A DNA stretch of 64,000 nt from a virus: IMG/VR virus record IMGVR_UViG_3300021178_000012, positions 1-64,000 of that record, one strand, 5' to 3'. Both the position numbers and the translations under genes were made by a program. This document shows, in pieces, positions 4,841 through 21,878 of the stretch. The notes beneath the pieces were generated by a model, which was not told the origin of the DNA, did no database searches, and saw nothing but the letters and a program-made list of their open reading frames with translations. Within the stretch, counting starts at the first letter, position 1, and every line of letters begins with the position of its first letter.

Positions 4841-4851
4841 TGTTTCGTCCT

Positions 4852-6258: not shown

Positions 6259-6266
6259 AAGTCACC

Positions 6267-7250
6267 TCACGAATACTCTTCGATGATGAGCAAGCCGGGT
6301 GTGCCTGCGCCGCCGTTCTGTGCGGCCGATGCGCCCGTGGCCGCCCCGCCGCCGCCTGCTCCGAAGCCGAGCGCAACGTTGCCTGAGCCGACGACCGTCG
6401 TCGGAGCGCCACCGCCGCCGAAGGGCCCGGACCCTCCACCTCCGCCTTGGACGATCGGTGTCGCCACGACGAGCGTGAACCCGCTCTCACCCGGGGCGCC
6501 TGCCCCGTTGATGTCACCGCGGCCCGACTGAATCCCGCCCGCTCCGCCTGCATTGACCGTGAGCGTGTTCGCCGCCGTGCCGACGGTGCCGCCGGTCCCG
6601 CCGAAAGCCTGAATCGCTCCGGGCGGCCCGTTGAACGTCGTCGTGCCACCGTTGCCGCCGACTGCTCCGACACCGCCCCCGCCGAGCGCACCGATCGAAA
6701 AGGTGAAGGTCGTGTTCGGCGTGACGTTGTAGACGCCTTCGACATACCCGCCCGCACCGCCTCCGCCTGCGCCTGCGGCCGACGCAGCGACGTTTGTACA
6801 CCCGCCGCCGCCACCACCGCCGCCAACGGCGCGCACGCGGATCTTGTTCGTGTTCGGGCCTGTCGTGAATGGAGAGGATGCCGAGGAGGTGAACACACTG
6901 CGCGCAAGGAACGCCCCGCTAGAGACGCCTGTCCCGACGGACTGCCCGATGACCGATGACGTAGACTGGTTCGCAGTCGACCCCTGGATACAGAAGATGG
7001 ACACCGACGAAGCGGTGCTCGTGGGGGCACCACCGTTCGTAACACCGACCCACGTGACCGCGTGTCCGCCGACGACGTCTTGCGCGAGTTGCACAGTGAG
7101 GTCGTGGCCTGGTCGGACATTCGTCACAGTGACCGTGACGTCGCCCGTCATCGTGGCCGTGAAGTAATTGCCTTTGCTACCGTCCACGGCAACAGCACCG
7201 GTCACGTTGCCGAGTGCGACAACTCCGTGAATCTGTCTTTCGAGTCCCAT
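6267..7250 (-). CDS. Spike-family protein C with glycine-rich domain
   Basis: 327 residues. The docking module occupies 1-75 (GVVALGNVTGAVAVDGSKGN). From about residue 135 comes KIRVRAVGGGGGGGG and a Gly-rich beta domain typical of phage fibre and adhesin tips. It shows the closest N-terminal match to protein B. A good ribosome site (GGAGAAGAAC) precedes the ATG. Likely surface-exposed and host-binding. Confidence 0.75.
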   Translation of the reverse strand: MGLERQIHGVVALGNVTGAVAVDGSKGNYFTATMTGDVTVTVTNVRPGHDLTVQLAQDVVGGHAVTWVGVTNGGAPTSTASSVSIFCIQGSTANQSTSSVIGQSVGTGVSSGAFLARSVFTSSASSPFTTGPNTNKIRVRAVGGGGGGGGCTNVAASAAGAGGGGAGGYVEGVYNVTPNTTFTFSIGALGGGGVGAVGGNGGTTTFNGPPGAIQAFGGTGGTVGTAANTLTVNAGGAGGIQSGRGDINGAGAPGESGFTLVVATPIVQGGGGGSGPFGGGGAPTTVVGSGNVALGFGAGGGGAATGASAAQNGGAGTPGLLIIEEYS

Positions 7251-7289: not shown

Positions 7290-7499
7290 TCACGCCTTCG
7301 GTTTGCGCTTGCGCTTCGCGCGACACTTCGCGCACGGACACGCCTTCGGTTTCGCCTTGGGGCGCTTCTTCTTCGCCGCGAGCATCGACTTGTACACGGT
7401 CATAACCACAGCGTACGGCTCCTCGTACTTGTCGGCGTGCGGAGCGACCACACGCTTCGCCTCGTTCCAGAGCTTCTCGTCGACGCGACCGCGGGGCAT
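7290..7499 (-). CDS. Small Lys-rich protein with CPCAKC motif
   Basis: 69 residues. The N-terminal half is helical; the C-terminal third is a run of Lys/Arg/Pro/Ala broken by CPCAKC, suggesting DNA binding and perhaps one metal. The ATG at 7499 overlaps the upstream TGA (TGATG). First of four neighbouring very basic genes (7.3-8.8 kb) that look like virion DNA-condensing proteins. Confidence 0.65.
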   Translation of the reverse strand: MPRGRVDEKLWNEAKRVVAPHADKYEEPYAVVMTVYKSMLAAKKKRPKAKPKACPCAKCRAKRKRKPKA

Positions 7500-7717
7500 C
7501 AACCTCTCCCGAACAGAAATTCGATAACGCCTTGGTCGGAAGAACTTCGACCCCCTCTCTTCTTTCTCCCCATCAACCGGTCGAACTTCTTGACAATCGA
7601 CCGGTATTCTTCGACAGAGTCGGCAGCATTGAGTTCTCGACGCCTTCGTTCTTCAAGAGAAGCGCGTCGGTGTTTCGGTTTCGCCCGCGACTTCTTCTTC
7701 GTTTTCTTGACGGTCAT
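7499..7717 (-). CDS. Small basic protein
   Basis: 72 residues with a Lys/Arg-rich N-terminus (MTVKKTKKKSRAKPK) and a second basic cluster, GRKKRGG. The C-terminus EFLFGRG resembles the SYIFG end of the large basic protein at 7893-8660. It overlaps neighbours by ATGA and TGATG. Probably a nucleic-acid-binding virion component. Confidence 0.6.
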   Translation of the reverse strand: MTVKKTKKKSRAKPKHRRASLEERRRRELNAADSVEEYRSIVKKFDRLMGRKKRGGRSSSDQGVIEFLFGRG

Positions 7718-7896
7718 ACACCCTCGTCCTCCTTCGCCCGCGCCGACGCCACAAGAACCTGCACCGCGAAGGCGTCTGCTTCATTAGCTGGGAGAACTAC
7801 GTCGATACCGAGACCTCCGTCCACCGTGAGATGGAAGGCTACGAAGGGCTTGCCTTCGATCTCTCGAGCACCGACGTAGTCGACCTTGGCGCTCAT
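7714..7896 (-). CDS. Hypothetical protein between basic virion genes
   Basis: 60 residues, neutral to acidic, predicted alpha/beta, with no known motif. Coupled by ATGA on both sides. Confidence 0.6.
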   Translation of the reverse strand: MSAKVDYVGAREIEGKPFVAFHLTVDGGLGIDVVLPANEADAFAVQVLVASARAKEDEGV

Positions 7897-8660
7897 CCGA
7901 AGATGTACGAGAGAAGCCCTTGCCTCGATCGTCCCTTGTGCGGGCGCCCGCTCTTCGTCGCGCGCTTGTAGTTGTACTTCCCAGGCTTCACCGCGTGCGA
8001 CCAGTGCTGACGGGCCGTGTGGCTCTTGCCGCAGTGCGGGCAGTGGCCCTTGGCCGACTTGTGACCGGCGACCTTGTGCGCGTGCTTGCGGTGCTTCGCG
8101 TGCGGCCTCTTGGCCTTGCGCGTGTGCTTCGCATGGGTCTTCTTGGCGTGCGCCTTCCTCGTCGTCTTGCGACGCTTGGGGGCCTTCGCCTTGGTGTGCT
8201 TCCTCGTGCGCTTGGCCGAGGCCTTGCGCGCACGCTTGGCATGCACCCTCTTCGAGAGGATGCCGCTCGTCTTGCGGGGCTTTGCTCGCTTCGTCGAACG
8301 CTTCGAGCGTTTCGTCGAGCGTTTCGAACCTTTCTTCTTCGTGGCCTTGTGGTGCTTCGCCATCGCCTTGCCGACCGCCTTTCTAGCCTCGCGCCCGGCG
8401 GGCGTCGCCATGGCCGCCGCCATCGGCGACACCATGCTCGTCGGCACACCGAGGGCCGCTGCAAGCTTCTTCCGAGTCTTGGTCGTCACGACCATCGTCG
8501 TGCCCGCAGCCTTCGCTGCGCGGCGAATCTCGGCGTTGCGTCGACGTGTGGCGGCGGCCTTGGCCTTCGCTGCCGGCGTGTTCGCGAGCTTCCGGAGCTC
8601 TGCCATTCCGGCTGCATCGCGGGGCTTCAAGTGAGCACCCCTTCCTTTCTTCTTCGGCAT
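7893..8660 (-). CDS. Histone-like Lys/Arg-rich protein with C/H zinc motif
   Basis: 255 residues, about half Lys, Arg, Ala and His. An N-terminal part carries MATPAGREARKAVGKAMAK, a motif shared with the 40-residue protein next door. A central tail of KRSTKR, KAK and KHTKAK repeats resembles linker-histone tails. Near the C-terminus a Cys/His cluster (CPHCGKSH and a further HxxxxHxxH) could bind zinc. This is expected to neutralise packaged DNA. The ATG at 8660 overlaps the upstream stop (TGATG); a GTG at 8663 is equally possible. It ends in LLSYIFG, a tail partly shared with the 72-residue protein. Confidence 0.75.
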   Translation of the reverse strand: MPKKKGRGAHLKPRDAAGMAELRKLANTPAAKAKAAATRRRNAEIRRAAKAAGTTMVVTTKTRKKLAAALGVPTSMVSPMAAAMATPAGREARKAVGKAMAKHHKATKKKGSKRSTKRSKRSTKRAKPRKTSGILSKRVHAKRARKASAKRTRKHTKAKAPKRRKTTRKAHAKKTHAKHTRKAKRPHAKHRKHAHKVAGHKSAKGHCPHCGKSHTARQHWSHAVKPGKYNYKRATKSGRPHKGRSRQGLLSYIFG

Positions 8661-8782
8661 CACTTCTTCTCCGTCTTCTGCGATCGGACCTTACCGAGCG
8701 CCTCGCTGATCTTCTTTCGAGCCTCACGGCCCTCGGGGGTTGCCATAGCTTCCGCCAAGGCGAACTTCTTCGGCTTTTTCAT
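8660..8782 (-). CDS. 40-residue basic protein related to the histone-like protein
   Basis: 40 residues. AMATPEGREARKKISEALGK is a shorter version of a motif inside the 255-residue basic protein, flanked by Lys-rich ends. It has a strong ribosome site (GGAGGAGAG) and overlaps the next gene by TGATG. Likely a DNA-binding virion peptide. Confidence 0.65.
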   Translation of the reverse strand: MKKPKKFALAEAMATPEGREARKKISEALGKVRSQKTEKK

Positions 8783-9289: not shown

Positions 9290-9733
9290 TCACCTTTTCT
9301 TCACGCCCGTAGCGACAGCGGCAACGGCCGCGAGAAGCCCGACGCCGACTGCCACTTTCCCCCAAACGGGGAAGTTTGACCAGAAACTTTGCCCGTACGC
9401 CTGGCCCGCCTGCTGCGCCGCGCGGTCGACCACGGGCTGCGCGACCGATGCGGCGGCCGATGAAACAGCCTGCGCCGCGGCTGCCGCGCCCTGCTGAAGG
9501 GCCTGCTGCGCTTGCTGCTGCTGTGCCTGTGTCGCGCCGGGGGGAGCGATGGGTGTTCCCTGCGCGAGCTTCTGCCCGGCCTGCGCGAGACCTTGAAGAG
9601 ACTTGCCAGGATCCTGCATCGCGCCGAAGAGCGCCTGCGTCGCGTTGTACGTCGCGTCGTAGATCGGGTTCGAGCTGAGATCGTCAGCGCCGACCGACGG
9701 CCTGCGCAACCTCACGTTGACCATTCTCTTCAT
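9290..9733 (-). CDS. Tail-anchored virion membrane protein, VRLxRP leader
   Basis: 147 residues. The N-terminus has VNVRLRRPSV, matching the start of the protein at 10145-10669. A Gln/Ala-rich central helix region follows, then one membrane helix at about 124-143 ending KKR. ATG at 9733 chosen for its position after the purine-rich AGAGGAAAG site. The upstream 58-base gap holds leader repeat copy 2. Confidence 0.65.
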   Translation of the reverse strand: MKRMVNVRLRRPSVGADDLSSNPIYDATYNATQALFGAMQDPGKSLQGLAQAGQKLAQGTPIAPPGATQAQQQQAQQALQQGAAAAAQAVSSAAASVAQPVVDRAAQQAGQAYGQSFWSNFPVWGKVAVGVGLLAAVAAVATGVKKR

Positions 9734-9749
9734 GACTTCTTTCCTCTCG

Positions 9750-9784
9750 TGTCTCGGCTTCGAAGGCGTCGAGCTGCCCTTGCT
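9750..9784 (-). repeat. Leader repeat element, copy 2
   Basis: Matches 1305-1339 over 35 bases with about five differences. Its inner 18 bases (9748-9765) match 29328-29345, upstream of the Ro60 gene, with one difference. In each case the element lies just 5' of a minus-strand gene, so it may be a processed leader or regulator site. Confidence 0.5.
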
Positions 9785-9791
9785 ATGTGAA

Positions 9792-10148
9792 TCACCGTCG
9801 CCTCCCAAAAAACCAAAGAACCGCCGCCCCGATGAACCCGAAGACGAGGACCATGGCCCCCGTTGAGGACGGTGGGTTCGGCTTCGAAACGGCCGTCGAC
9901 GTCGGCACAGACGGAACGGTTGCCGGTGCGGGCGGTGGCGTGCCTGTCGAGTCTTGCGCGGTTGTCTCAGGGGCTACAGTCGGTCGATCGACCAAGAGCG
10001 ACACAGGGCCAAGCGTCGCCTCCGTTGCCGTCTTAGTGGCGGAGTTCAACGATTCAGTCGCCGACTTCCAAGCGTTGTTCACGGAGTCGAGCACGCCACC
10101 CACCGGGGTGCGTCTCGCGTCGGCTTTCTTGACCCGTCGACGGCTCAT
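9792..10148 (-). CDS. Tail-anchored membrane protein
   Basis: 118 residues: basic N-terminus (MSRRRVKK), Ser/Thr-rich helix, Pro-rich linker, and a single C-terminal membrane helix at about 97-114 followed by GRRR. This is one of four consecutive C-terminally anchored proteins. It overlaps the upstream gene by ATGA (10145-10148). Confidence 0.65.
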   Translation of the reverse strand: MSRRRVKKADARRTPVGGVLDSVNNAWKSATESLNSATKTATEATLGPVSLLVDRPTVAPETTAQDSTGTPPPAPATVPSVPTSTAVSKPNPPSSTGAMVLVFGFIGAAVLWFFGRRR

Positions 10149-10669
10149 CTTGACCTCGGCATGTACGCTTTAACACCGAGCACTACAGCACCCACGAGTA
10201 CGACACCGATGCCTGCCTTGACGTACCAAGGGATCGGAACGACCAGACCGCCCGGCCCGCTATCGGAACCAAGCATCCCGAGCACGCCGAAGAGACCGGA
10301 CTCGGCCGCCTTCTTCACTGTCGTCTTGGCAGCATCCGCGGCGGCTGCGATGTTCTCGTTCGCGATCTGGTTCACGGTCGAAGTGTTCCCGGTCGCGTTG
10401 ACGCCGATGCTCGCGATGGGGTTTATTCCGGTGAGCACATCGACCGGTGTGACGCCATCGCTTGCACCCTTCGCGACAGGATCCATGAGACCGCCGCGCG
10501 AGAGATCGATCCCCTGCTCAGCAGATCGGAGATCGGCGGCAGCCTTGGCGATTGCGGTTTGGTCTCCGCTTATTTGAGCGGTGGTCAACGCCTTCGCAGC
10601 AGCCTTCACTACGTTGGGATCGACGAGGCCTGCGACGACAGCAGGTCTCGAAAGTCTCACGTACTTCAT
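10145..10669 (-). CDS. Tail-anchored membrane protein, VRLxRP leader
   Basis: 174 residues. MKYVRLSRPAVVAG at the start parallels the protein at 9290-9733. An Ala-rich region follows, then one membrane helix at about 148-167 with a basic end. The ATG at 10669 overlaps the upstream stop by ATGA; the GTG-type start three codons earlier is less likely. Confidence 0.65.
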   Translation of the reverse strand: MKYVRLSRPAVVAGLVDPNVVKAAAKALTTAQISGDQTAIAKAAADLRSAEQGIDLSRGGLMDPVAKGASDGVTPVDVLTGINPIASIGVNATGNTSTVNQIANENIAAAADAAKTTVKKAAESGLFGVLGMLGSDSGPGGLVVPIPWYVKAGIGVVLVGAVVLGVKAYMPRSR

Positions 10670-11115
10670 TTGGCGCACCCGTGAACGAGAAGGGTAACGA
10701 GAGCGGGCATCACAATCCCGTAGAATGCCGCGATGCCGCCGAGGATGAAGCGGTTCCTCGTCACGCGCTTCCGACGCTTCTCTTCAACGTCCTCGAGCCC
10801 AGCTTCGGAAGCGAGCTTGAGGCTCGTCTTCGCCGCTTCGTGCGCAAACTCATCGGTCCAGCTTGCACGAGAACTCTGCTCGTTCGCAGCCTTCGCACTG
10901 CGTGCTGCGCGGTTGGCCGTCGACTCAGCGCCACGCGCAATCGAGAGGAGCTCGAACATGCCGGTTTCGATGCGGCCTTGCGTGTCTGCGATCTCGTCGA
11001 CCTTTTTCTCGAGCCGATCTTGGCGCAAGCGCATGCCGCGGGTGTCCGAAAGGACCCCGTCCACCTTCCCGTGAAGGAGACTCAGCTCGCTTTGCTCTTC
11101 GTCGGCCGTTCGCAT
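10666..11115 (-). CDS. Coiled-coil protein with C-terminal membrane anchor
   Basis: 149 residues: a heptad-rich region at about 5-110, basic patch EKRRKRVTRNR, then one membrane helix at about 125-145 ending HGCAK. The layout (long exposed coil, C-terminal anchor) suits a virion membrane protein projecting towards the capsid or the DNA. Confidence 0.65.
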   Translation of the reverse strand: MRTADEEQSELSLLHGKVDGVLSDTRGMRLRQDRLEKKVDEIADTQGRIETGMFELLSIARGAESTANRAARSAKAANEQSSRASWTDEFAHEAAKTSLKLASEAGLEDVEEKRRKRVTRNRFILGGIAAFYGIVMPALVTLLVHGCAK

Positions 11116-11118
11116 GGC

Positions 11119-11709
11119 TCAGCGTGGTACTCGGTGCGCCGTGCTCATTCGCACAGGAGCAGAAAACGCGGAATGTTGCGGGTCCGCGATCGGGGTCGGC
11201 GAGAAGACGGAATGTCCTGGGTCAGCAAACTGCGATGTCGGAACGTCGGTTCTTGACTGGTGAATCTTGGCATGAGGCATTTGGGCAGCAACAGCCAGGG
11301 CGACCGCATTGGCCTGGTCAACTGAAGCTTCAGGCACTTCGCTACTCACCTTTTTGAAGATATAGGAAATGCGGTCCATCATGACTGCCGCATTTTTCTC
11401 CTTGGTCGTATCAAATCCGTATTTGTCTCCTAATTTTGCCCAGGCTACCGACTCGCTGCCGGCCCAGATAGCGTACTGGTCCGTGCTCATGCCACCAGGT
11501 GGCTCGCTAACCAAGACAACGGCGCCTTCAAATGGGTGAAGATCCCATTGAGGGGTTCCTATTCTTCCAATTGAGATCTTTTTGGCGTCGGGGTCATGGT
11601 CCACTCCGCTGGCCCATCCGGTCTTCATCGACGCCGGAGAACTTCGCCCGGCCACGTACCCGACCAGAAGGCCGATGCTTCCAGCCACGAATGTTCCTAG
11701 GTGTTTCAT
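11119..11709 (-). CDS. N-terminally anchored virion membrane protein
   Basis: 196 residues: membrane helix at about 4-22 (LGTFVAGSIGLLVGYVAG), then a globular domain, then two copies of a short motif (FADPGHSVFSPTP and IADPQHSAFSAP) near the C-terminus. The ATG at 11709 lies one base after the stop of the upstream gene. The region 11.1-11.7 kb is visibly lower in G+C than its neighbours. Confidence 0.65.
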   Translation of the reverse strand: MKHLGTFVAGSIGLLVGYVAGRSSPASMKTGWASGVDHDPDAKKISIGRIGTPQWDLHPFEGAVVLVSEPPGGMSTDQYAIWAGSESVAWAKLGDKYGFDTTKEKNAAVMMDRISYIFKKVSSEVPEASVDQANAVALAVAAQMPHAKIHQSRTDVPTSQFADPGHSVFSPTPIADPQHSAFSAPVRMSTAHRVPR

Positions 11710-11710
11710 G

Positions 11711-12994
11711 TTAGAAGTCCTCTCCCCATGCATCAGGATCCTTCTTCGGTGGGGGATCATCTTTCGGCAAGGACTTCGGCGGCGGTTTCACGAACCCTGC
11801 GGTCTGCAACATCGCCGGATCGATCTGCGTGCCGTCCGCGAGGAAGTAGTTCCCCTGGTCGTCGGTGTAGATCGTGTTCGGATCCGATGCTGCCGGTGAG
11901 TTCGGGTCGGGCATCGTGAGGTATACGTTCCCCTGCTCGTCTTGCGAGAGCATGCTCGGATCGATCGGGGTCCCGTCCGCGAGGAAGTAGTTGCCTTGAC
12001 CGTCGGTGTAGATGTCCGTGGCCGAGGTCGTGTCCGATGCAGGCGAGTAGCCAGGCTGCAGCTGGGCAAACCCCGGATCTCTCGGGGCCACGGGGAGAAG
12101 ATCTGGCGACGGCGCCGAACTCGGCGGCGTGAACACGCTCGACAGGAACGGCGACTTCGCCGCTGGTGCAGGCGAAGGCTGGGCGTTCATTGCATCGAGC
12201 ACGCTCGACATCGCACGCGACGGCGCCTTGAGCAACGACAGGACCGGGTGAGGGATCGACTTCGTGAGAGCCTGCGCTGCCTTCGCTGCGTTGTCTGCGA
12301 GGAGGTGCGGCGTGTACGTCGGGTGAGCGTTCGCGGTGTCAGTCACGCATCCAGCGATCTGGCTTGCGGAGCACTGCGGGCACGCGACGGCGACGGCCTT
12401 CAAGACGAAGGACGCCCGGTCGGCGAGAACGAGGGAGTTCGTGCGGCTCGAGCCCATAGGGAAACCCGTGGCCTCTTGATAGACCTGCGCGTTGGTCTGG
12501 TAATCCTGCTTCGGAAGACCTTGCGAAATAGATGCAAGGTGACCCGCCCGCATCGGACTCCCGTTGTTGTTGGTGACATCGTTACCGACGCTGTCCGTAA
12601 TAGGCGTCTGTGGATCTGGTCCAATCACGATCGAGCCGTTGATAGTGACGGACGGCATGTTCCGGTCCATCGGATTCACACCCTGCGCCGCCGAGATGAT
12701 GTTGTCGGCGATACGCTGCGGCTCGTCGTTCGGCGACTCGCTGCACGCGGCAGCGATCACGGCGGCGACGTCATACGCGAGGGGCTCCTCCTTCGCCGTC
12801 GACGGATCGATGCGCGGCGTACTCTTGGCCCCCTGCGCGATGGCATCCGAAGTTGCTCCAGCACCGACGTCGCCCGCGGTCTTCGCAGCCATGCGCGCCT
12901 TAGCCATGTCGACGGCCCGAACGACGCGTCCCTTGAGAAGAACCCCTGCGGCGACGACGGCACCGAGAACATAGAGACCGGTGTGCTTTTTCAT
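11711..12994 (-). CDS. Large membrane-anchored virion protein with repeats
   Basis: 427 residues: membrane helix at about 6-22 and a long soluble part. A Pro/Ser-rich linker follows, then two copies of IYTD(G/D)QGNYFLADGT, at about 328-343 and 375-390, separated by a related QGNVYL unit. The tail is Pro/Lys/Asp-rich. Several Cys (residues 80-220) could form disulfides. Likely a major membrane-associated virion protein; no family recognised. Confidence 0.65.
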   Translation of the reverse strand: MKKHTGLYVLGAVVAAGVLLKGRVVRAVDMAKARMAAKTAGDVGAGATSDAIAQGAKSTPRIDPSTAKEEPLAYDVAAVIAAACSESPNDEPQRIADNIISAAQGVNPMDRNMPSVTINGSIVIGPDPQTPITDSVGNDVTNNNGSPMRAGHLASISQGLPKQDYQTNAQVYQEATGFPMGSSRTNSLVLADRASFVLKAVAVACPQCSASQIAGCVTDTANAHPTYTPHLLADNAAKAAQALTKSIPHPVLSLLKAPSRAMSSVLDAMNAQPSPAPAAKSPFLSSVFTPPSSAPSPDLLPVAPRDPGFAQLQPGYSPASDTTSATDIYTDGQGNYFLADGTPIDPSMLSQDEQGNVYLTMPDPNSPAASDPNTIYTDDQGNYFLADGTQIDPAMLQTAGFVKPPPKSLPKDDPPPKKDPDAWGEDF

Positions 12995-13185
12995 GAGACC
13001 CTTCTTTGCAATCGAATCGGCATGGCAACGAAACCACGCTGTCGACGCTCGAACTCTGGAACGATGCCGCCTTCGACGCCAGGCGAAGCGTGTTGCCGTT
13101 GAAGCGTCTCGGCCGACTTCTTGATGAAGTAGTACGCACCATAGCCGAGGACGCCAAGTGTTCCGAGCATGACGGCGAGTTTCAT
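12991..13185 (-). CDS. Small N-terminal-anchor membrane protein
   Basis: 64 residues with a membrane helix at about 3-21 followed by KKSAETLQRQ and a short basic tail. ATGA overlaps on both sides (12991-12994 and 13182-13185). Confidence 0.65.
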   Translation of the reverse strand: MKLAVMLGTLGVLGYGAYYFIKKSAETLQRQHASPGVEGGIVPEFERRQRGFVAMPIRLQRRVS

Positions 13186-13841
13186 GCAGCCTCCGCTTGG
13201 GCGAGCTTCTCGACGTTTACCCATCCTGTGATGACGTGCACGTTGCCGATGCTCGGATGGTCGATGATCTTGTCGCCTTGGATTGTCCACTTTCGCGTGC
13301 GCGCGGCGACGCTCTGGTGACCACCGATGTCAACGACACCGCCATCGACCGAGGTGAAGGACATCGTCGCTGGATCGACGCTCGTGATCGTCCACACATG
13401 ACCAGTTGGCTTGTCGACGTCACCCATGACGACGTCGCCGGGCTCGGGCAGAAGCCCGGGCTTCCCTTCGACCCAAGCGCCGAGCTTGATGGCGAGGTTC
13501 CTGAGCGCCGAGATCGCTGTGCCGTTCTGGTAGGGCGCGTGGAAGCTCGCGTCGGTGAACCCTGCCATGCGAAGGATGGCCCGCGCGACAAGGCCACACG
13601 TCGAGACCTTCGGATAGAGGGCCATGTCGTGCTTGACGTTGGCCGCTTCGCCGGGGCCTCCGAGGAAGTCCTCGAACGCGGTCGGATCGCCAGATGCGGT
13701 CATGCCGACCGCGCCCTTGGCAATCGAGACGATCTTCGCTCGCAGGGGACTCAATGAAGAGCCGCTGTTTCTGAACGCCGCAATGAGCCCGGTGACAGTG
13801 GCAGCGATGGCGACGCCGAGCATGACGTGGAATGGCTTCAT
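13182..13841 (-). CDS. Membrane-anchored Cys/His peptidoglycan hydrolase (CHAP/NlpC-like)
   Basis: 219 residues. Residues 1-24 are a membrane anchor nearly identical to that of the next gene (MKPxHVM, then a hydrophobic run, then AAFR). The soluble domain has STCGLVARAIL around Cys82 and a PGDVVMGD strand before TGHVWTI around His148. That Cys then His order, with the strand between, is the pattern of CHAP and NlpC/P60 amidases. Probably cuts peptide bonds in the cell wall during entry, from the virion membrane. Confidence 0.75.
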   Translation of the reverse strand: MKPFHVMLGVAIAATVTGLIAAFRNSGSSLSPLRAKIVSIAKGAVGMTASGDPTAFEDFLGGPGEAANVKHDMALYPKVSTCGLVARAILRMAGFTDASFHAPYQNGTAISALRNLAIKLGAWVEGKPGLLPEPGDVVMGDVDKPTGHVWTITSVDPATMSFTSVDGGVVDIGGHQSVAARTRKWTIQGDKIIDHPSIGNVHVITGWVNVEKLAQAEAA

Positions 13842-14467
13842 ACGAGCACCCCGCCATCGCCCACGCGCTTACCCGCAACAGAGGAGAGTCGCCCGTACAC
13901 CGCAGCACGCACGTCGCCGACGGTGATCGAGCCCTTGCCGGCCTTGTCGTAGACCTTGTTCAAGGTATAGGCCTGCTCCGGGTCAGTCGCGATGACCGTC
14001 GCATCGGGCGCGTTGATGTGCGAGCCCCATCCCTGCATGGCTGGGTCGGTCTTGTACCCGGGCGCGTGAAGGATCGCCGTCTTCACGTCATCGAGTTCCT
14101 GGAGGCCGGTCTCGCCGGCGATCTCGTCGGACGTGTGGCCCGTGCTTCCGACGGCATACTTCGGGACCCATTGAAGGAATCCCGCGGCACCGATGCCGTT
14201 ACGCGCCTGCGGATTCCACCCGCTCTCCTCGTCGATGAGTGACGCAAGTCTGTCGCCGTTGGCGCCCGTTTCGCGGATGACCTTAAGGAGCTTGCGGATG
14301 AACCCCGGCTCGAGCTTCTCACGCGCGAGAAGCCGAGGGAACGCGGGAAGCGTTCCGCTCTCGGGCGAGCTCAGGACTGCGGATGACGTCGAACCACGGA
14401 ACGCCGCGACCAACCCCGCAAGGGCGGCTGTCACTGCGACGGCGATCATGACGTGGAGCGGTTTCAT
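13838..14467 (-). CDS. Membrane-anchored lytic transglycosylase
   Basis: 209 residues. The anchor at 1-24 matches the previous protein. The domain at about 65-200 carries SLIDEESGWNPQARN, with catalytic Glu81 in the E-S-G motif, then GAAGFLQW, the second conserved block of SLT-type transglycosylases. Cleaves the glycan backbone of peptidoglycan. PRD1 P7 is a membrane-associated virion transglycosylase of similar role. ATGA overlaps on both sides. Confidence 0.85.
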   Translation of the reverse strand: MKPLHVMIAVAVTAALAGLVAAFRGSTSSAVLSSPESGTLPAFPRLLAREKLEPGFIRKLLKVIRETGANGDRLASLIDEESGWNPQARNGIGAAGFLQWVPKYAVGSTGHTSDEIAGETGLQELDDVKTAILHAPGYKTDPAMQGWGSHINAPDATVIATDPEQAYTLNKVYDKAGKGSITVGDVRAAVYGRLSSVAGKRVGDGGVLV

Positions 14468-14562
14468 CGGTACTTGAGGTAGATGGCGACAACGATAGCG
14501 GCGGTAACGACCACGATGGGCACGCGGAGATGCACGAGGGCCGCTCTCGTGCGCGCGGTCAT
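14464..14562 (-). CDS. 32-residue single-pass membrane peptide
   Basis: 32 residues: basic N-terminus and one hydrophobic helix at about 14-29 ending KYR. It overlaps the transglycosylase start (14464-14467) and the next upstream stop (14559-14562) by ATGA. That exact double coupling, and its neighbours, support it as real despite its size. Confidence 0.6.
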   Translation of the reverse strand: MTARTRAALVHLRVPIVVVTAAIVVAIYLKYR

Positions 14563-14732
14563 GCGAACCTCTTACCAATGACGTAGATGGTCCCGGCAAC
14601 GATCGCGAAGGCGAAGGCCATCGTGATGGCCACCGACGTGCGGAGGTTTTTCTCTTCGGAAGTTTCGCCACCTACGAACGGTCGGCAACTCCCGTCAGGG
14701 TAAAGAGCCCATCCGATAGGAGTTCGAGTCAT
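14559..14732 (-). CDS. Small C-terminally anchored membrane protein
   Basis: 57 residues with a short soluble N-terminus (IGWALYPDGSCRPF) and one membrane helix at about 36-54 ending GKRFA. The ATG at 14732 overlaps the upstream stop by ATGA; a GTG 39 bases earlier is an alternative. Confidence 0.6.
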   Translation of the reverse strand: MTRTPIGWALYPDGSCRPFVGGETSEEKNLRTSVAITMAFAFAIVAGTIYVIGKRFA

Positions 14733-14821
14733 GCCGGCTCCTGTGGCTTGCTTGCGTTGACGAGTGCCCACGCGAAGGCGCCGATCACGAGAATCACGAC
14801 GAGCGGAGCGACGGTTTTCAC
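14729..14821 (-). CDS. 30-residue single-pass membrane peptide
   Basis: 30 residues from a GTG at 14819-14821 (GTGA overlap with the upstream stop) to TGA 14729-14731 (ATGA overlap with the next gene). Hydrophobic at about 4-21, then a short polar tail NASKPQEPA. Confidence 0.55.
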   Translation of the reverse strand: MKTVAPLVVILVIGAFAWALVNASKPQEPA

Positions 14822-15006
14822 TTCGACCCCGCCTTGAGGCGCACGTACCCGCGACTACCAGACGTCTCCATCGGCCCGTAGAGGCTGACGAACGCGGAGC
14901 GCGTCACGTTGCGACCGCTCTTCGTGAGGAAGAGATAGGCGCCGAGAGCGACGAGCCCATAGGGACCATACTTCCTGGCGTTGGCTACGAGCACCGGGAA
15001 CTCCAC
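14818..15006 (-). CDS. Small membrane protein
   Basis: 62 residues with a hydrophobic segment at about 13-28 (YGLVALGAYLFL) and a basic C-terminal part. Its start lies 22 bases inside the upstream gene. Confidence 0.6.
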   Translation of the reverse strand: MEFPVLVANARKYGPYGLVALGAYLFLTKSGRNVTRSAFVSLYGPMETSGSRGYVRLKAGSK

Positions 15007-15404
15007 GACTTCCCCATCGCCAAGAGCGATTGCGCGAGCTGCGAGGTGGCGTTGACCGCACCGGACGCAGCCGAGTTCGGGTCAGACGCCGCCTGTTGCG
15101 CCATCTGCGCGGCCGTTGCGGCGGCCTGCGCTACGGCAGCGGTACCCTCGGCGACCGCTGCACTAGGAGATGCGCTAGGTGGCGGAATGGCTGCCCCCTG
15201 CGGTGCACTCGGCTGCGCCTGTGCGGGGGTGGGCTTCGAGAAGCCGAGCGGATGCGCCCTGAAGTACGCCGCGATTGCCGATGCGTCGTCCATCGGAGGC
15301 GATCCCGGCGGCAGCGCTGCATGCGCCTTTTTCTTCACATAGTACCCGAGACCGAGAACGGCCGTGATCCCGGCAACGATGGCTGCGATGACAGGCTTCT
15401 TCAT
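14985..15404 (-). CDS. N-terminal-anchor membrane protein, AAYF motif
   Basis: 139 residues: membrane helix at about 4-22, then DDASAIAAYFRAHPLGF, then a Pro/Ala/Gln-rich low-complexity tail. The segment after the anchor is shared with the next protein (DDNAAIAAYFKAHPFTF), so the two are paralogues that differ in their tails. Confidence 0.65.
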   Translation of the reverse strand: MKKPVIAAIVAGITAVLGLGYYVKKKAHAALPPGSPPMDDASAIAAYFRAHPLGFSKPTPAQAQPSAPQGAAIPPPSASPSAAVAEGTAAVAQAAATAAQMAQQAASDPNSAASGAVNATSQLAQSLLAMGKSWSSRCS

Positions 15405-15634
15405 GACGACACCCTGGCATTCTCCATTGCGTTCTGCTTCGCACGGACAGCATCCTCGAGCACGCCTGGAGTGAACGTGAACGGATGCGCCTTGAAGTAC
15501 GCGGCGATCGCCGCGTTGTCATCTGTCGCCGTGGCGGGCACACCCGGCGCGTGGCGCTTCTTCAGCCAGAGGTACCCAGCGCCCAGGAGCGCGACGACGC
15601 CCGCTCCGACGATGAGTGTCGCGTGCCTTTTCAT
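15401..15634 (-). CDS. Short paralogue of the AAYF-motif membrane protein
   Basis: 77 residues: membrane helix at about 6-23, then DDNAAIAAYFKAHPFTF and a short polar tail. Paralogue of the 14985-15404 product without the low-complexity region. ATGA overlaps on both sides. Confidence 0.65.
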   Translation of the reverse strand: MKRHATLIVGAGVVALLGAGYLWLKKRHAPGVPATATDDNAAIAAYFKAHPFTFTPGVLEDAVRAKQNAMENARVSS

Positions 15635-17586
15635 GGTCCACCTTTTCGTGTGAGCAAAAACGTTCCGAAGCCGATCAGCCCGACGCCGGCCGCGACGAGT
15701 CCTCCGAGGAGAGTGACCTTAGGCTTCGGCGGCGCAAGCGTCATAGAGGCTCGCACGGGTACGCTGCCGAACCTTGACAGGAACGGGTTGGCTGAAGCGA
15801 GAACGGTCTTCATGGCGCGAATCGGGACGGTGAACGTCGGCAAAAAAAGCTTCGCTGTTCGCTCCGGAGGAACGTAGCCCGGTTTCGCGCACCCTGCCTG
15901 CAACTTGACTGCATCAGGAGCAGACGATGCCGCGGCCGTATCTTCGTTCTTCTTGTGGATGTCGATGAGCGCGTCGAGTCGCTTCGCGAGCTGATCGACC
16001 GAGAGGATCGTTCCGTAGTTGATCGTCGCCCACCTCCAATTGAAAGGGGCGACCTTTCTCGCGTACGTGAGCGACTCCGAGACGCTCGCGCCAAGGCGAC
16101 GACGTTGCACGTACGCACACATCGCGTCTGGCGGAACCATCGGCACGTAGTACGTTCCACCCTTCGCGTTGTTCGGTGGGTTCGCATACTCCTTGAGCGC
16201 CTCCGCGAGACCGCCGCCGTTCGCCCATTTGTTGTACTGCCCGCTTGCGATTTCTTCACTCGTAAGTGGAGTCGTGCCGGGGATGTCTGCTCCTCCCTTG
16301 TCGACGAGCTGAATGTCCGGCATCCGAATATCTTCGATGCGGTACGGCACCGCAAGCGCGAAGTGGGAAAGGTAGATGCCAGCGTCCTTGCCTGACACTT
16401 GCGTCGCCGTGCCGATTGTGATTCCTGACACCGAAGAAATGGTCGAGGCGGCCTTCTGAATCATGTCGATGCCGGCGGCGACGCCTGCTTGAGAGACGTT
16501 CGAGATAGCCGTTCCGATGTCGGGCGCGTTCTTTACCGCGTTCGCCCCCATCGTCGCGGCATCGCTTGCCGCATTGAACATCGCCGTGACCCCTTGCTGT
16601 CCGGCTGCTCCCGAGATACTTGCGCCGAGCTTGGCTCCTGTCTGTGCAAGGCCTGTTGCAGTATCGACGGTCGTCGACGCCTTCAGCGAAGCGTCGGCCC
16701 CCGATGCCGTATCTTGCGCCATCGCTCCCGCTTGCTGCATTCCTGCGCCGGCCTTAGCCGCATCGGAACCGGGTGGTGCGAAATGCTCAATGAGCCCGCC
16801 AGCAATCGAAACGGCTGTCCCGACAGAACCAATGACACCGAGAACGCCGCCGACGGAGATGCCTCCCGCGGCGGCTGCTGTGACTACCGGGGCAATGATC
16901 CCCGACGTTGTAGCTGCCACGGTAAAACCACCGCCCGTCGCGCCGAGGATCGCGCCACTTGCTCCGCCGGCAGCGGCCCCGCCAGCAATCGCAGCCGTAG
17001 CGCCGCCAGCCACAGCAGCGCCGGCAGCGGCCCCGCACGTGCATGCGATAGCGATGGCGATCCCGACGCCCGTGAAGATGGCTGCGAGCCAGGGCGGGTG
17101 CTCCTTCAGTGGATCCTCCCACACGGAGTCGCCCATATTCGCCGACCACTCGATGATGAGCCCAGAAAAAAGGAGGTCGTTGTAGGTGCCGAGGTTGAAG
17201 TGAGAGATCGACTTGCAGAGACTAACAGGAAGGCTTCCCGACGGGGCTCCGTCTGCAATGTCCTCTGGAATGGCGGTATTGCCAGCCCAATCTCCTCCGC
17301 CTTCAACCGCGTTGCGTTGCTCCTCGATGTAGAACTTCCCGCCCGGATCGGCGAACGTGACTGCACCGAAGCGCCACGGATTCGCACGGTAGGCGTCCTT
17401 CGTGGCAGCGTCCTTGATGATCCGCCCGTGCACGTTACCCGTGTCACTGCCTGAAGCCCCCGGAAGAGACTCCCACTTCATCCCACGGGCAATCCAGTCG
17501 TCGCTTGAGTAGATGAGCGGAACGTTGACCGTGCGGCCATACTGAATGTCGCCGCCGACGACGATCTTTCGCTTGAGGGAGATCAC
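15631..17586 (-). CDS. Large multi-segment virion membrane protein
   Basis: 651 residues. An N-terminal soluble domain of about 160 residues is followed by Gly/Ala-rich hydrophobic segments at about 165-290, a polar Ala/Gly-rich helical stretch, a second soluble domain (about 395-600) containing AKVAPFNWRWATINYG-like sequence, and a final membrane helix at about 629-646. The largest virion-type gene here. Such glycine-zipper membrane regions could form a channel or tube for DNA delivery, but no family is recognised. Confidence 0.65.
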   Translation of the reverse strand: MISLKRKIVVGGDIQYGRTVNVPLIYSSDDWIARGMKWESLPGASGSDTGNVHGRIIKDAATKDAYRANPWRFGAVTFADPGGKFYIEEQRNAVEGGGDWAGNTAIPEDIADGAPSGSLPVSLCKSISHFNLGTYNDLLFSGLIIEWSANMGDSVWEDPLKEHPPWLAAIFTGVGIAIAIACTCGAAAGAAVAGGATAAIAGGAAAGGASGAILGATGGGFTVAATTSGIIAPVVTAAAAGGISVGGVLGVIGSVGTAVSIAGGLIEHFAPPGSDAAKAGAGMQQAGAMAQDTASGADASLKASTTVDTATGLAQTGAKLGASISGAAGQQGVTAMFNAASDAATMGANAVKNAPDIGTAISNVSQAGVAAGIDMIQKAASTISSVSGITIGTATQVSGKDAGIYLSHFALAVPYRIEDIRMPDIQLVDKGGADIPGTTPLTSEEIASGQYNKWANGGGLAEALKEYANPPNNAKGGTYYVPMVPPDAMCAYVQRRRLGASVSESLTYARKVAPFNWRWATINYGTILSVDQLAKRLDALIDIHKKNEDTAAASSAPDAVKLQAGCAKPGYVPPERTAKLFLPTFTVPIRAMKTVLASANPFLSRFGSVPVRASMTLAPPKPKVTLLGGLVAAGVGLIGFGTFLLTRKGGP

Positions 17587-17915
17587 GGCAGCACCCCAAA
17601 GAGGAACGCGAAAAGCCCTCGGCGGTCGCGGCGAGACATTAGTGTGCGCGAGGCGCGGCTTCTGCTGGCGTCGTGCTCACGAACGAGTTTCTCGGCCAAC
17701 TTGTCGCTCTCCCTCATGCGCTTGAGGGCAAGCTGCTCGAACTTGTGCGCCGGCGTGCCTTTGTACCAACCACTCCCGGGCCCAACCATCTCGGGCATAT
17801 GAAGATGGTACCTGTCGCGGAGTTCGCGAAGCTGATGCAGCTCGGCCGTTGTCAACCATCGGCAGAGGCCGTCTTTTCCTGCGCGCGGGAAGGTCACGAC
17901 AAGAACCCGAACCAT
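17583..17915 (-). CDS. Hypothetical basic protein
   Basis: 110 residues, helical and Arg/Lys-rich, ending with a hydrophobic LFAFLFGVLP. No known motif. It overlaps the large membrane protein by ATGA and the upstream gene by 22 bases. Confidence 0.6.
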   Translation of the reverse strand: MVRVLVVTFPRAGKDGLCRWLTTAELHQLRELRDRYHLHMPEMVGPGSGWYKGTPAHKFEQLALKRMRESDKLAEKLVREHDASRSRASRTLMSRRDRRGLFAFLFGVLP

Positions 17916-18688
17916 CCGCTGCCGGATGCCTTCTTGAGCATCGTCACCTGCGAGTAGTCGATGTGCGTGTTGTGACCCGTCGAGTCGATGTGCATCCCGC
18001 CCTTCGACTGAATGAGCGGATTCCCGTCGACATCGCGACCCGTCGCGTTCTTGTCGTACCAGCCGAAGTTGTACCCGCCCTCGAGCCAGTACTTACCGAC
18101 GTTCGACACGGGCACCGACCCGCTCCACCCCTTCGCCGTGAGCTGCTCGTGCACCTTCTGGTCGTGCTTCTTCGCGAACGCGAGCGAGGCCATCTTCAAC
18201 GTGTCGGCGCTCGTCGCCACAAGAGTGACAGGCACAATCTCGAGCGCCTCTCCGGTCTTCGCAGCCTCGTGGATGTGCGCGAAGTCCTTCTCCTCAAGAA
18301 GCTCGGCTCCAAGACGCGCGGCGACGGCCTTCGCGTCATCGTACTTGAGACGCGCGAAAAGACCTGTGCGCGAGTCGGTCAACGGGAGCGCCGTGACCTG
18401 CATGCCTTGAAAGTCGACCCAGCCACCGGGGTCGGAAAGCACCGCGTACTCTGGCGGCGTAAAATACACGTCCGAGTCGTCGGGCTTACTCTGTACGGTG
18501 CTCGGTCCGGTCGACGGTGGAAGCGGCGTCGAAGCAGGCGTCGCGGCCCTGACTGGTGGCGGAACGGGTCCTGGTCGGGGGGCTGTCGGCGTCGTGGCTG
18601 TAGCAGCCTTCGCAGTGCGCGAAAACGCAATGAGCCCGGCGATCACAACCGCCGCGCCTACAGCCAGTAAAGCTCCCAACTTGCCCAT
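17894..18688 (-). CDS. Membrane-anchored soluble protein, virion enzyme candidate
   Basis: 264 residues: membrane helix at about 5-21, Pro/Thr-rich stalk to about 70, then a compact alpha/beta domain. Features include EYAVLSDPGGWVDF, LGAELLEEKDF and, at the C-terminus, GGMHIDSTGHNTHIDYSQV with several His and Asp that could bind a metal. The stalk-plus-domain build matches the two cell-wall hydrolases nearby, but no active site is certain. Confidence 0.6.
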   Translation of the reverse strand: MGKLGALLAVGAAVVIAGLIAFSRTAKAATATTPTAPRPGPVPPPVRAATPASTPLPPSTGPSTVQSKPDDSDVYFTPPEYAVLSDPGGWVDFQGMQVTALPLTDSRTGLFARLKYDDAKAVAARLGAELLEEKDFAHIHEAAKTGEALEIVPVTLVATSADTLKMASLAFAKKHDQKVHEQLTAKGWSGSVPVSNVGKYWLEGGYNFGWYDKNATGRDVDGNPLIQSKGGMHIDSTGHNTHIDYSQVTMLKKASGSGWFGFLS

Positions 18689-18722: not shown

Positions 18723-19637
18723 TCAGACGAAAGACATGTGCCATTGCACGAACCCGTTGACGTTGGTCGTACCCGCCGTAACTTGAACACGCTGCGCGTT
18801 GTGATGACCGACGCGCGTCATGAATGCCGATTGATCCGACGTGCCCGTGAGTTGCACAAGCGTATCGACAGGCACAGCCCCTGGACCAACGACCTTTGCG
18901 AGAGATCCGCCTGCGGTCTCCTGAGAGATCGCGATCGTTGGCGCAACGAACGGTGCGGCGGCGTTGTCGTTGTACGTGAAGGAATGGGCGCCGAGGGGGA
19001 CCGCGTTGAACGTCCTAGTAGTTGCGGTCGCGTCCCCGGTGCGCGCGAGTCGAAGAGAGAGCGTCGCATCAGCTTCCAACGGAGACCCTCGACGTACAGC
19101 GTGCTCGTGTGAGCGCTGCATCGGATGTCCGGCTATGGCCATTGCAATGTCGTACTCGCTCTCGACGAGAAAGTACTCGAAGGTCCAAGAGCCGGGGTAT
19201 TGCGAGATGACCGAAAGCTTCCCCGGATACGGAAGAAGCATCATCCGGTTGCCGACGATGTCGAAGAAGAACTTCATCGTGTCGGTGCTGGTGTTGATCC
19301 CATTGATCTTCACCTTGTCCGGGTCGACGAGGTCCGAAGACGTCGCGGCGATCTCGTACCGCAGAAACGGGCCTTCGAGCGTGAACCCTGTCCGTGCGCC
19401 TGAGAACACCGGATCTGGATCGAGTGCGTTCTGTGCGGCGGCACCGTACTGCGGCGTGAGACCTGCACCGCCAGCGTTGTCGAATGCCGTGACGTCAAAG
19501 CTCCCCGACTTGAGCTTCATGAGGAGCTTGGAGGGTCGACAGATGTTGGCGATCGTCTGCTCAGCAAGATTGAGCACACACGTCGCCGCACCGGTCTTCG
19601 TGACCTTTGCTCCTCCGACTGTGACGTCTCGTGACAC
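18723..19637 (-). CDS. Beta-rich virion protein, second capsid/vertex candidate
   Basis: 304 residues from a GTG with AAGGAA ribosome site. Dominated by alternating beta patterns and Gly/Asn turns, with no membrane segment. Located between the membrane-protein run and the main capsid candidate. It could be a second capsid protein or a vertex protein; no family is recognised by eye. Confidence 0.6.
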   Translation of the reverse strand: MSRDVTVGGAKVTKTGAATCVLNLAEQTIANICRPSKLLMKLKSGSFDVTAFDNAGGAGLTPQYGAAAQNALDPDPVFSGARTGFTLEGPFLRYEIAATSSDLVDPDKVKINGINTSTDTMKFFFDIVGNRMMLLPYPGKLSVISQYPGSWTFEYFLVESEYDIAMAIAGHPMQRSHEHAVRRGSPLEADATLSLRLARTGDATATTRTFNAVPLGAHSFTYNDNAAAPFVAPTIAISQETAGGSLAKVVGPGAVPVDTLVQLTGTSDQSAFMTRVGHHNAQRVQVTAGTTNVNGFVQWHMSFV

Positions 19638-20322: not shown

Positions 20323-20670
20323 TCACTGCGCGAACTTGTTCACGACGTCGGCAGTTCCCATATTGACGGCACTGCCGACGATGTGAAACACCGTTACGGC
20401 CGCAGCGCCGGCTGCCGGGGTCGTCTTGTTCGTCGCCGTGAAGGCGTTGAGCGTCTGGCCTGCCCACGTGATCGTCCGTCCGCCGCCGCCGTCTTGCGTG
20501 ACGATGACGTCGATCGAGTGACCTGGCTTCACGTTGGAAAGCGTGAACGTTGCGTTGCCAGCCGGGAATGTGAACGTGAACACGTTGCCCAGACTCGCAT
20601 CGATTGCCGCAGTGGCTCCTGTGACAAGCGCCACGACGCCACGAACCGGAATATCGCCCTTTTGTCCCAT
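20323..20670 (-). CDS. Small member of the spike N-terminal module family
   Basis: 115 residues. GVVALVTGATAAIDASLGN, then VKPGH, then RTITWAG align with the docking module of the three spike-family proteins at 3-7 kb. It is almost only the module plus a short C-terminus. It could be the base protein on which the spikes assemble or a decoration protein. AAGGAAGAGG ribosome site. Confidence 0.7.
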   Translation of the reverse strand: MGQKGDIPVRGVVALVTGATAAIDASLGNVFTFTFPAGNATFTLSNVKPGHSIDVIVTQDGGGGRTITWAGQTLNAFTATNKTTPAAGAAAVTVFHIVGSAVNMGTADVVNKFAQ

Positions 20671-20717: not shown

Positions 20718-21878
20718 TCAGCGTCGGCGACGCGGAACCGGAACGTTGCACCCTGTCGTGCAACCCTGGAGTTGCGGATCCATCCAGTGCGCTACGGGGA
20801 GAGACTCCACCGATCCTTTGAAGGAGAGATCCTCCGCCGGAACATCGTCGTCACTCCACTGACCAACGACCTCTTGCACCCCGGCGACGAGCGTCGGCGA
20901 CTTGTCGTCGTCATCCCATCCTGTTTCCGCAGGGCCGGCGACAGGCGCTGGCGCATGCGAGTGAGGCGCAGGCAGTGGTGCGGCTTCGACTTCGTCGTCG
21001 GCCCATCCGTCGCCCACGCTCGATGCGTCGGGCGCTGCGCTGCTCTTCCCGAGCGCCGCCTTGCACGAGCCGCACGACCCGCCGCAGTGACAAGCACCGC
21101 CGTGATCATGACCAGCTGTGTCGGTGGTATCAGCCACGTCGGTGGGGCCGTCGTAGGAGTTCGCCATCACGTAGCGGTCGGCGAGCACTTCGTAGTCGGG
21201 CTCCTGGTCTCGATTGATCGCATCGATGATGTACGTGATCGATGACTTCTCTTGACCGGACACTTCCTCGGAGGCGAGTACGTCACGCGGATCCGTCGGC
21301 GGGTTCAGCGAAGCCTCCGCAGCGTCGAGCGCTGCCAGCGCGTAGTTCTTGTGGTTCGCCATGTTCGCGGCGGACAATGCCGAAGCGCTTCCGCTCACAG
21401 TCGTGGCCGCCTTCCTCGAGCGGTGCTCGAGCACGCGAGAAAGATGAGCGAGGCGCTGACCCGCACGCGCCATGTTCGCCATCTCGACCTGCTCTCGGCT
21501 GCCGGTCATGTACCCGGTGGCTCGCGCGTGACGACGCCTCGAAACCTGCGCGCTCTCTTTGCGCTTCGAGTCGGCCTCTCGGAGGGCCTTCACCGTGGGC
21601 AGCTCGATGGCCGACGCTCCGACCACCGCGGGGTCGCGCGGAAGGTTGCTCGACGTGAGCAACGACGCAGCGCCTTCCATCCCGGCGACGACAGGACCGG
21701 CGACGTTCTTGAACGTGTCCTTGCAGTCGTCGATGATCGTCTGGAGAAAGCAGTCGGCGACGGTGTGCACCGGGATCGACGTGATCTCTTCGACACCCTG
21801 AAGGATGAGCTTGCTTCCCTGGTACGCGACGCCGATGTTTCCGGCAGTCATGAGAGCTGGCAAAAGTGCGGGCAACAT
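20718..21878 (-). CDS. Hypothetical virion protein with Cys/His cluster
   Basis: 386 residues. The first 28 are hydrophobic (MLPALLPALMTAGNIG). A basic helical middle region follows. Around residue 275-290 lies HDHGGACHCGGSCGSC, a dense metal-binding cluster. The last 100 residues are acidic with repeated WxDDD/E motifs. Strong AAGGAG ribosome site. Confidence 0.6.
   Translation of the reverse strand: MLPALLPALMTAGNIGVAYQGSKLILQGVEEITSIPVHTVADCFLQTIIDDCKDTFKNVAGPVVAGMEGAASLLTSSNLPRDPAVVGASAIELPTVKALREADSKRKESAQVSRRRHARATGYMTGSREQVEMANMARAGQRLAHLSRVLEHRSRKAATTVSGSASALSAANMANHKNYALAALDAAEASLNPPTDPRDVLASEEVSGQEKSSITYIIDAINRDQEPDYEVLADRYVMANSYDGPTDVADTTDTAGHDHGGACHCGGSCGSCKAALGKSSAAPDASSVGDGWADDEVEAAPLPAPHSHAPAPVAGPAETGWDDDDKSPTLVAGVQEVVGQWSDDDVPAEDLSFKGSVESLPVAHWMDPQLQGCTTGCNVPVPRRRR

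What the first reader, a model, noticed from the sequence alone, without database searches (positions are those of the whole stretch)
9290..18688. Run of about 18 single-anchor membrane proteins and no tail genes: a large internal-membrane phage?
Nearly every gene from 9.3 to 18.7 kb has one hydrophobic helix at the N- or C-terminus, and the whole 23 kb virion arm shows no terminase, portal, tail tube, tape measure or baseplate. Membrane-containing phages (PRD1, PM2) have this gene style, but their genomes are 10-18 kb, while this one exceeds 64 kb. This could be an undescribed lineage of large tailless phages.
Basis: partly seen in the sequence, partly recalled or inferred. Interest (0 to 1): 0.85.

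Follow-up and report, generated by a model that had tools for sequence, protein, structure and literature searches.

The report
Large tailless membrane-phage candidate genome
This stretch belongs to an essentially complete circular phage genome of about 84,000 bases that has a long block of membrane-anchored virion-type proteins but no detectable tail, portal, terminase or DNA-packaging motor, so it is probably a large tailless, membrane-containing bacterial virus, about twice the size of the largest such phage I could compare it with.

Summary
The observation mostly holds. Of 16 late genes at 9,290-18,688, 12 (strict) to 14 (relaxed) carry a hydrophobic anchor, nearly all single; "about 18" is an overcount. 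The density equals PRD1 and P23-77 and exceeds the tailed controls (0-8 of 16). The record is 83,579 bp. Its two ends encode the N- and C-terminal parts of one protein family with about 28 residues missing between them, so the genome is very probably a circle of about 83.7 kb. Absence of TerL, portal, HK97 capsid and tail genes is therefore probably real. The positive alternative, an FtsK/HerA packaging ATPase, is also absent: only three real Walker-A proteins exist, all replication or repair enzymes. No capsid fold could be shown (AF2 pLDDT 33). A second soil genome, G017 (77.6 kb, also closing on itself), has the same style: single anchors, anchored lytic enzymes, a basic protein, no TerL, no motor. 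Best reading: a large tailless membrane-containing phage, probably a new lineage with an unrecognised way of packaging DNA. Virion type remains inferred.

The parts
22371..23204 (-). Capsid-protein candidate, 277 aa. No detectable relatives.
   Evidence: Second gene of the late operon; no hit in IMG/VR, GTDB contigs, phages, PHROGs, PDB; AF2 single-sequence model unusable, pLDDT 33.
21898..22362 (-). Cys/His-containing protein, possibly a transglutaminase-like peptidase (by eye only), next to the capsid candidate
   Evidence: DCEDIACAHAAYLL ... SIAHCVCG; no Pfam/PHROG hit; G017 36477-37223 looks similar by eye.
20718..21878 (-). 386-aa late protein of unknown fold
   Evidence: No convincing family hit.
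20323..20670 (-). Stand-alone 115-aa copy of the domain that heads the spike-like proteins
   Evidence: Homologous to N-termini of 6267, 4852, 3056; AF2 with 17 sequences, pLDDT 70; weak Foldseek matches to a phage capsid spike and tailspikes.
18723..19637 (-). Second capsid/spike candidate, 304 aa
   Evidence: No relatives.
17894..18688 (-). 264-aa protein with N-terminal anchor
   Evidence: TM at residue 4, mean KD 2.59; no relatives among phages.
15631..17586 (-). 651-aa protein with two central glycine-rich hydrophobic stretches and a C-terminal anchor; possible membrane-insertion or DNA-delivery protein (inference)
   Evidence: TM at 167, 234, 626; no relatives.
14818..15634 (-). Three small anchored proteins (14818-14994 borderline; 14985-15404; 15401-15634); the last two are paralogues
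14559..14732 (-). 57-aa protein with C-terminal anchor
   Evidence: TM at residue 34, mean KD 2.32.
13838..14467 (-). Membrane-anchored transglycosylase (N-terminal anchor + SLT-like domain), like PRD1 P7 in function
   Evidence: Pfam SLT E 3e-4, just below cut-off; PRD1 P7 E 0.0027; TM at residue 4.
13182..13841 (-). Membrane-anchored CHAP-like peptidase candidate sharing its anchor with 13838
   Evidence: CHAP E 0.03; similar to 13838, E 7e-7.
9290..13185 (-). Seven further late genes with N- or C-terminal anchors (9290, 9792, 10145, 10666, 11119, 11711, 12991)
   Evidence: 11119 and 12991 pass only the relaxed cut.
7290..8782 (-). Cluster of very basic proteins (7290, 7499, 7893, 8660); 7893-8660 is 255 aa, net charge +78; DNA-condensing candidates
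   Evidence: Composition; 7893 and 8660 are related.
2331..7250 (-). Spike / receptor-binding genes; three share the N-terminal domain of 20323-20670 and carry different C-terminal parts
   Evidence: the domain also occurs in tailed phages.
1939..2238 (-). GroES-like co-chaperonin
   Evidence: Pfam Cpn10 E 3.5e-33.
1341..1532 (-). 63-aa one-anchor protein, holin candidate
   Evidence: TM mean KD 2.96.
2..205 (-). N-terminal part (68 aa) of a protein that runs off the left contig end; its C-terminal part is at the right end of the 83,579-bp record

Best explanation
The window is most of an essentially complete circular dsDNA phage genome of about 83.7 kb whose late operon (23.6 kb down to 0.3 kb, then across the contig join to 78 kb) encodes a tailless, membrane-containing virion. 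Proposed working: capsid and vertex proteins come from 23.6-18.7 kb; the 9.3-18.7 kb block encodes single-anchor proteins of a virion membrane, including an anchored transglycosylase and a CHAP-like peptidase that open the cell wall at entry and a 651-aa hydrophobic protein that may build the delivery channel; basic proteins at 7.3-8.8 kb condense the DNA; several spikes with a common base domain (2.3-7.25 kb) sit at vertices; endolysin and holin release progeny. DNA enters the particle without a recognisable virus-coded motor, either by condensation and membrane wrapping or by a host or moonlighting ATPase. Shown: anchors, gene order, circular closure (by homology), absence of TerL/portal/HK97/HerA-type matches, spike paralogy. 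Inferred: the virion membrane, taillessness of the particle, capsid identity, packaging mode.
For: Anchor density equal to PRD1 and P23-77, above the tailed controls. Ends join within one gene: left fragment = profile positions 7-68, right = 97-236 of a family seen whole in plasmid-borne proteins; left fragment E 4e-5 at Z=180. No TerL (PF03237, PF04466, phrog_2), portal PF04860, HK97 PF05065 or DUF87 match, with working controls. Only three true Walker-A proteins: DnaC-like loader, UvrD, exonuclease-AAA_24. Virion-arm PHROG scan: only fibre-type hits plus weak tape-measure-type hits to short proteins. Anchored transglycosylase and CHAP-like genes. Second genome G017 of the same style without TerL or motor, also closing on itself within a repeat.
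Against: No capsid protein identified by homology or fold. No packaging ATPase, which most known varidnaviruses share (PMC8328091, abstract). Other phage genomes can reach 8 of 16 TM genes. The spike domain and the 80406-80969 protein also occur in TerL-bearing phages, and replication genes resemble those of tailed phages. The transglycosylase hit is below the Pfam cut-off. Circular closure rests on homology, not reads.
Confidence: 0.57

Rival explanations
1. A tailed phage (Caudoviricetes) whose terminase, portal, capsid and tail genes are too divergent to be recognised; the anchored proteins are accessory.
For: Tail-fibre-type spike domain, replication genes and integrase like those of tailed phages; weak tape-measure-type PHROG hits.
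Against: TerL is among the most conserved phage proteins and needs an ATPase motif; no unassigned Walker-A protein exists in six frames; no long tape-measure gene; profiles that match working controls find nothing.
Confidence: 0.15
2. A membrane-vesicle or spindle-type virus without an icosahedral capsid (plasmavirus-, pleolipovirus- or bicaudavirus-like), which needs no packaging motor.
For: No motor, many membrane proteins, basic DNA-binding proteins.
Against: An endolysin-type gene suggests lysis rather than budding; no short two-TM major protein typical of those groups was seen; soluble late proteins at 18.7-23.2 kb look like capsid or spike components.
Confidence: 0.16
3. The two contig ends belong to one gene family by chance or duplication and several kb with ordinary head-tail genes are missing.
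For: IMG/VR classes the record as linear; the left fragment match is modest (16.7 bits).
Against: Correct order, strand and non-overlapping halves; one tblastn piece covers both in a Streptomyces plasmid protein; no other G000 protein matches the family.
Confidence: 0.08
4. A satellite or other element that borrows a helper's capsid and motor, or a non-viral plasmid.
For: No own capsid or motor recognised; ParB-like protein without a ParA-type ATPase.
Against: Large spike, anchor and lysis set of its own; no relaxase among the listed family hits and no spare ATPase for conjugation.
Confidence: 0.04

Closest known systems
[quoted passage not shown]
   Same: Large circular dsDNA tailless phage with internal membrane, few relatives (PMC6356626)
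   Different: 43.8 kb; has a virion ATPase (gp40); no sequence similarity to G000 beyond chance; lower anchor density (5/16)
PRD1 (Tectiviridae)
   Same: Run of small single-anchor virion proteins, transglycosylase P7, penton P31 sharing its domain with spike P5
   Different: 14.9 kb linear genome, packaging ATPase P9, double-jelly-roll P3; none matched here except the transglycosylase weakly
Thermus phage P23-77 (Matsushitaviridae)
   Same: Anchor density 10/16, transglycosylase and lysozyme in the virion arm
   Different: 17 kb, two single-jelly-roll MCPs, packaging ATPase; none matched
FLiP / PhiCjT23 (Finnlakevirus-like)
   Same: Internal-membrane phages; the PhiCjT23 paper never mentions an ATPase
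   Different: ssDNA, 7.6-9.2 kb
G017, IMGVR_UViG_3300005440_000009 (unclassified)
   Same: About 77.6 kb, closes on itself, integrase, single C-terminal anchors, anchored lytic enzymes, basic protein, no TerL or motor; shares the 80406-80969 protein at 68%
   Different: No other virion gene recognisably shared; carries a rolling-circle Rep-like protein; its N-terminal MxxLRWxG motif is not in G000

Membership tests
Varidnaviria (Tectiliviricetes / Helvetiavirae) | Double or paired single jelly-roll major capsid protein | tested here: inconclusive
   No sequence match to PRD1 P3, P23-77 VP16/17, SSIP-1 candidates or PDB; AF2 model unusable
Varidnaviria (Tectiliviricetes / Helvetiavirae) | FtsK/HerA-type packaging ATPase | tested here: not met
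   No DUF87 match, no unassigned Walker-A protein
Varidnaviria (Tectiliviricetes / Helvetiavirae) | Virion membrane with small anchored proteins | tested here: inconclusive
   Genes for them present at PRD1 density; the membrane itself cannot be tested here
Caudoviricetes | Large terminase subunit | tested here: not met
   PF03237, PF04466, phrog_2 negative, controls positive
Caudoviricetes | Portal and HK97-fold capsid | tested here: not met
   PF04860, PF05065 negative; virion-arm PHROG scans negative; the fold itself was not tested
Caudoviricetes | Tail tube, tape measure, baseplate | tested here: not met
   Only fibre-type hits and weak tape-measure-type hits at E 0.006-0.03; a baseplate-hub PHROG hit to 13838-14467 is its lysozyme-like domain
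SSIP-1 group | Homologous structural proteins and gp40 ATPase | tested here: not met
Membrane-containing virion | Lipid in purified particles, chloroform sensitivity | not testable with these tools
   Needs particles

The most novel reading that the evidence does not exclude
A new high-rank lineage (or several convergent ones, with G017) of 75-85 kb tailless membrane-containing bacterial viruses that encode neither terminase nor FtsK/HerA motor and enclose their DNA by protein condensation and membrane wrapping.
Probability: 0.25. Interest if true: 0.92.

Novelty: new variant of a known kind. Interest (0 to 1): 0.72.

Why it matters
Tailless membrane phages are thought of as small; SSIP-1 at 44 kb is the largest compared here. 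A complete 84-kb genome of this style with no recognisable packaging motor would about double that, show that such viruses are missed by hallmark-gene screens (which look for TerL, HK97, jelly-roll MCP and ATPase), and make the question of how a long dsDNA genome is packaged without a virus-coded motor directly testable.

Tried and rejected
Relatives of the two capsid candidates, the 651-aa protein, the transglycosylase, the 264-aa anchored protein and the exonuclease fusion: none found; the collection scans rest on exact short peptide patterns and so reach only close relatives. AF2 without an alignment for 22371-23204: pLDDT 33, not used. Spike domain as evidence of kinship: rejected, it also occurs in TerL-bearing phages. 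TROVE relatives: do not share virion genes. Virus Rctr197k as kin (best UvrD hit, from a reactor with tailless internal-membrane particles, PMC5099504): rejected, shares only four non-virion genes and carries a terminase-like gene. L018 as kin: by gene content a phage of another group. Other carriers of the 80406-80969 family: two carry TerL and the others lack the anchor run; only G017 fits. Homology to tectiviruses or SSIP-1: none beyond the weak transglycosylase match. Not resolved: which late protein matches phrog_863 (tail fibre assembly). Host not identified.
Full report
What was checked. The window is bases 1-64,000 of an IMG/VR virus record of 83,579 bp; I read the rest as L001. A simple codon-based gene caller gave 177 genes: an early, mostly plus-strand arm (about 24-78 kb) and a late minus-strand arm running from 23.6 kb down to 0.3 kb and, if the ends join, on through 83.5-78 kb to an endolysin-like gene.

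The anchor run. Between 9,290 and 18,688 there are 16 late genes (one, 9792-10148, missed by the caller and added by hand). Twelve carry a strict transmembrane segment, fourteen at a relaxed cut; one of these has two additional central stretches. Label shuffling over the genome never reproduces the cluster (0 of 20,000). The same method gives 11 of 16 for PRD1, 10 of 16 for P23-77, 5 for SSIP-1, 6 for Mx8 and N4, and 0-8 for other loci. So the run is real and PRD1-like, but some other phage genomes come near, and it is not proof alone.

Completeness. The left end codes for the first 68 residues of a protein that runs off the contig; the right end, same strand, codes for the last 137 residues of a protein that enters from outside. 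Joined with a spacer of X they match single plasmid-encoded proteins of Streptomyces (query 2-210 in one piece) and Rhizobium (3-181). A profile from five such proteins places the left piece at 7-68 and the right at 97-236; no other protein of the genome matches. The simplest reading is a circle missing about 28 codons, about 83.7 kb in all. The left match is modest (16.7 bits, E 4e-5), so this is strong inference, not proof.

What is absent. Six-frame searches with PF03237, PF04466, phrog_2, PF04860, PF05065 and DUF87 find nothing, while control genomes respond. PHROG scans of late and early proteins show no terminase, portal or capsid; the tail-type hits are fibre-like, plus weak tape-measure-type hits to short proteins and lysozyme-domain hits of 13838-14467. 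Plausible Walker-A motifs occur in only three proteins: a DnaC-like helicase loader, UvrD, and a 5'-3' exonuclease fused to an AAA_24 domain. So both the tailed-phage motor and the varidnavirus motor seem to be missing. Sequence comparison alone is weak here (PRD1 and P23-77 ATPases find each other only at E 0.08-0.09), so the motif scan carries the argument.

What is present. 13838-14467 is an anchored transglycosylase-like protein (SLT E 3e-4; PRD1 P7 E 0.0027) that resembles the CHAP-like 13182-13841, their N-terminal anchors being nearly the same by eye. Four proteins share a base domain, one of them consisting of it alone (20323-20670), as PRD1 P31 and P5 share theirs. AF2 with 17 sequences gives a beta domain of moderate confidence (pLDDT 70) that weakly resembles phage spikes; it also occurs in tailed phages. 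A cluster of very basic proteins follows, one with net charge +78. Three proteins (7499, 7893, 17583) end in a similar peptide, G-[LV]-[LIF]-x-[FY]-[LI]-F-G; shuffled proteins give 0.01 C-terminal hits on average, but the pattern was chosen after seeing the sequences and also catches the C-terminal anchor of 15631.

A second genome. The 80406-80969 protein has 14 relatives in IMG/VR. Two of their contigs carry TerL. One, G017 (77.6 kb, GC 0.63), does not, and is strikingly alike in style: integrase-bearing plus arm, long minus late arm, ten proteins beginning MxxLRWxG-like of which nine carry an anchor, lytic-enzyme genes (glucosaminidase-like and endolysin-type hits) one of them anchored, an Arg/Lys-rich 613-aa protein, no motor. 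Its two ends lie in one repeated gene in register, so it too seems circular. Apart from the 187-aa protein, an HNH-type protein and a distant integrase, little is clearly shared with G000, so it supports the kind, not close kinship. Its 42162-43670 product has motifs of a rolling-circle Rep (FLTLT, HVHIH, KYLTK; by eye).

Reading. I favour a large tailless membrane-containing phage (0.57). Known relatives by function are PRD1, P23-77 and SSIP-1, but it cannot be filed with any: the packaging ATPase test fails and the capsid test is inconclusive. Tailless viruses found in a 2023 archaeal virome are around 10 kb, while the roughly 80-kb ones there are head-tailed (PMC9894754).

Noticed in passing
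window 27431-27548 (-) and 27624-29312 (-): A Ro60 (TROVE + vWA) gene lies next to a tRNA-like RNA in which about 54 nt replace the anticodon arm, as in bacterial YrlA-type Y RNAs (recalled, not tested); a normal tRNA-Asn is at 27217-27289.
   Followed up: partly
L001:15271-15744 (record 78871-79344, outside the window): 157-aa truncated N-terminal part of a TnpB/Cas12-like protein; a match in Virus Rctr197k (L040:12351-14219) lies directly beside an annotated CRISPR repeat array.
   Followed up: partly
window 63166-63942: DpdA-like protein (Pfam DpdA E 1.7e-58 among the scanned set; gene assigned by eye), suggesting 7-deazaguanine DNA modification or a tRNA-guanine transglycosylase role.
   Followed up: no
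window 51656-53857: 5'-3' exonuclease fused to a Sak4/RecA-like AAA_24 domain in one 733-aa protein; phage matches cover only about half or less of it.
   Followed up: partly
L001, record 70474-71964 and 72179-73349: Tandem duplication of a three-gene block.
   Followed up: no
window 7499-7717, 7893-8660, 17583-17798 (-): Three late proteins share a C-terminal peptide G-[LV]-[LIF]-x-[FY]-[LI]-F-G, a possible docking or virion-targeting tag.
   Followed up: partly
L065:2162-3670 (G017 42162-43670, -): Rep-like protein with rolling-circle motifs FLTLT, HVHIH and KYLTK in the TerL-less genome G017.
   Followed up: partly
L001:16806-17369 (record 80406-80969): 187-aa protein found at 50-73% identity across otherwise different phages, both with and without TerL; a mobile virion component?
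   Followed up: partly
window 851-1276 (-): Dual-specificity phosphatase-like protein inside the late operon.
   Followed up: no
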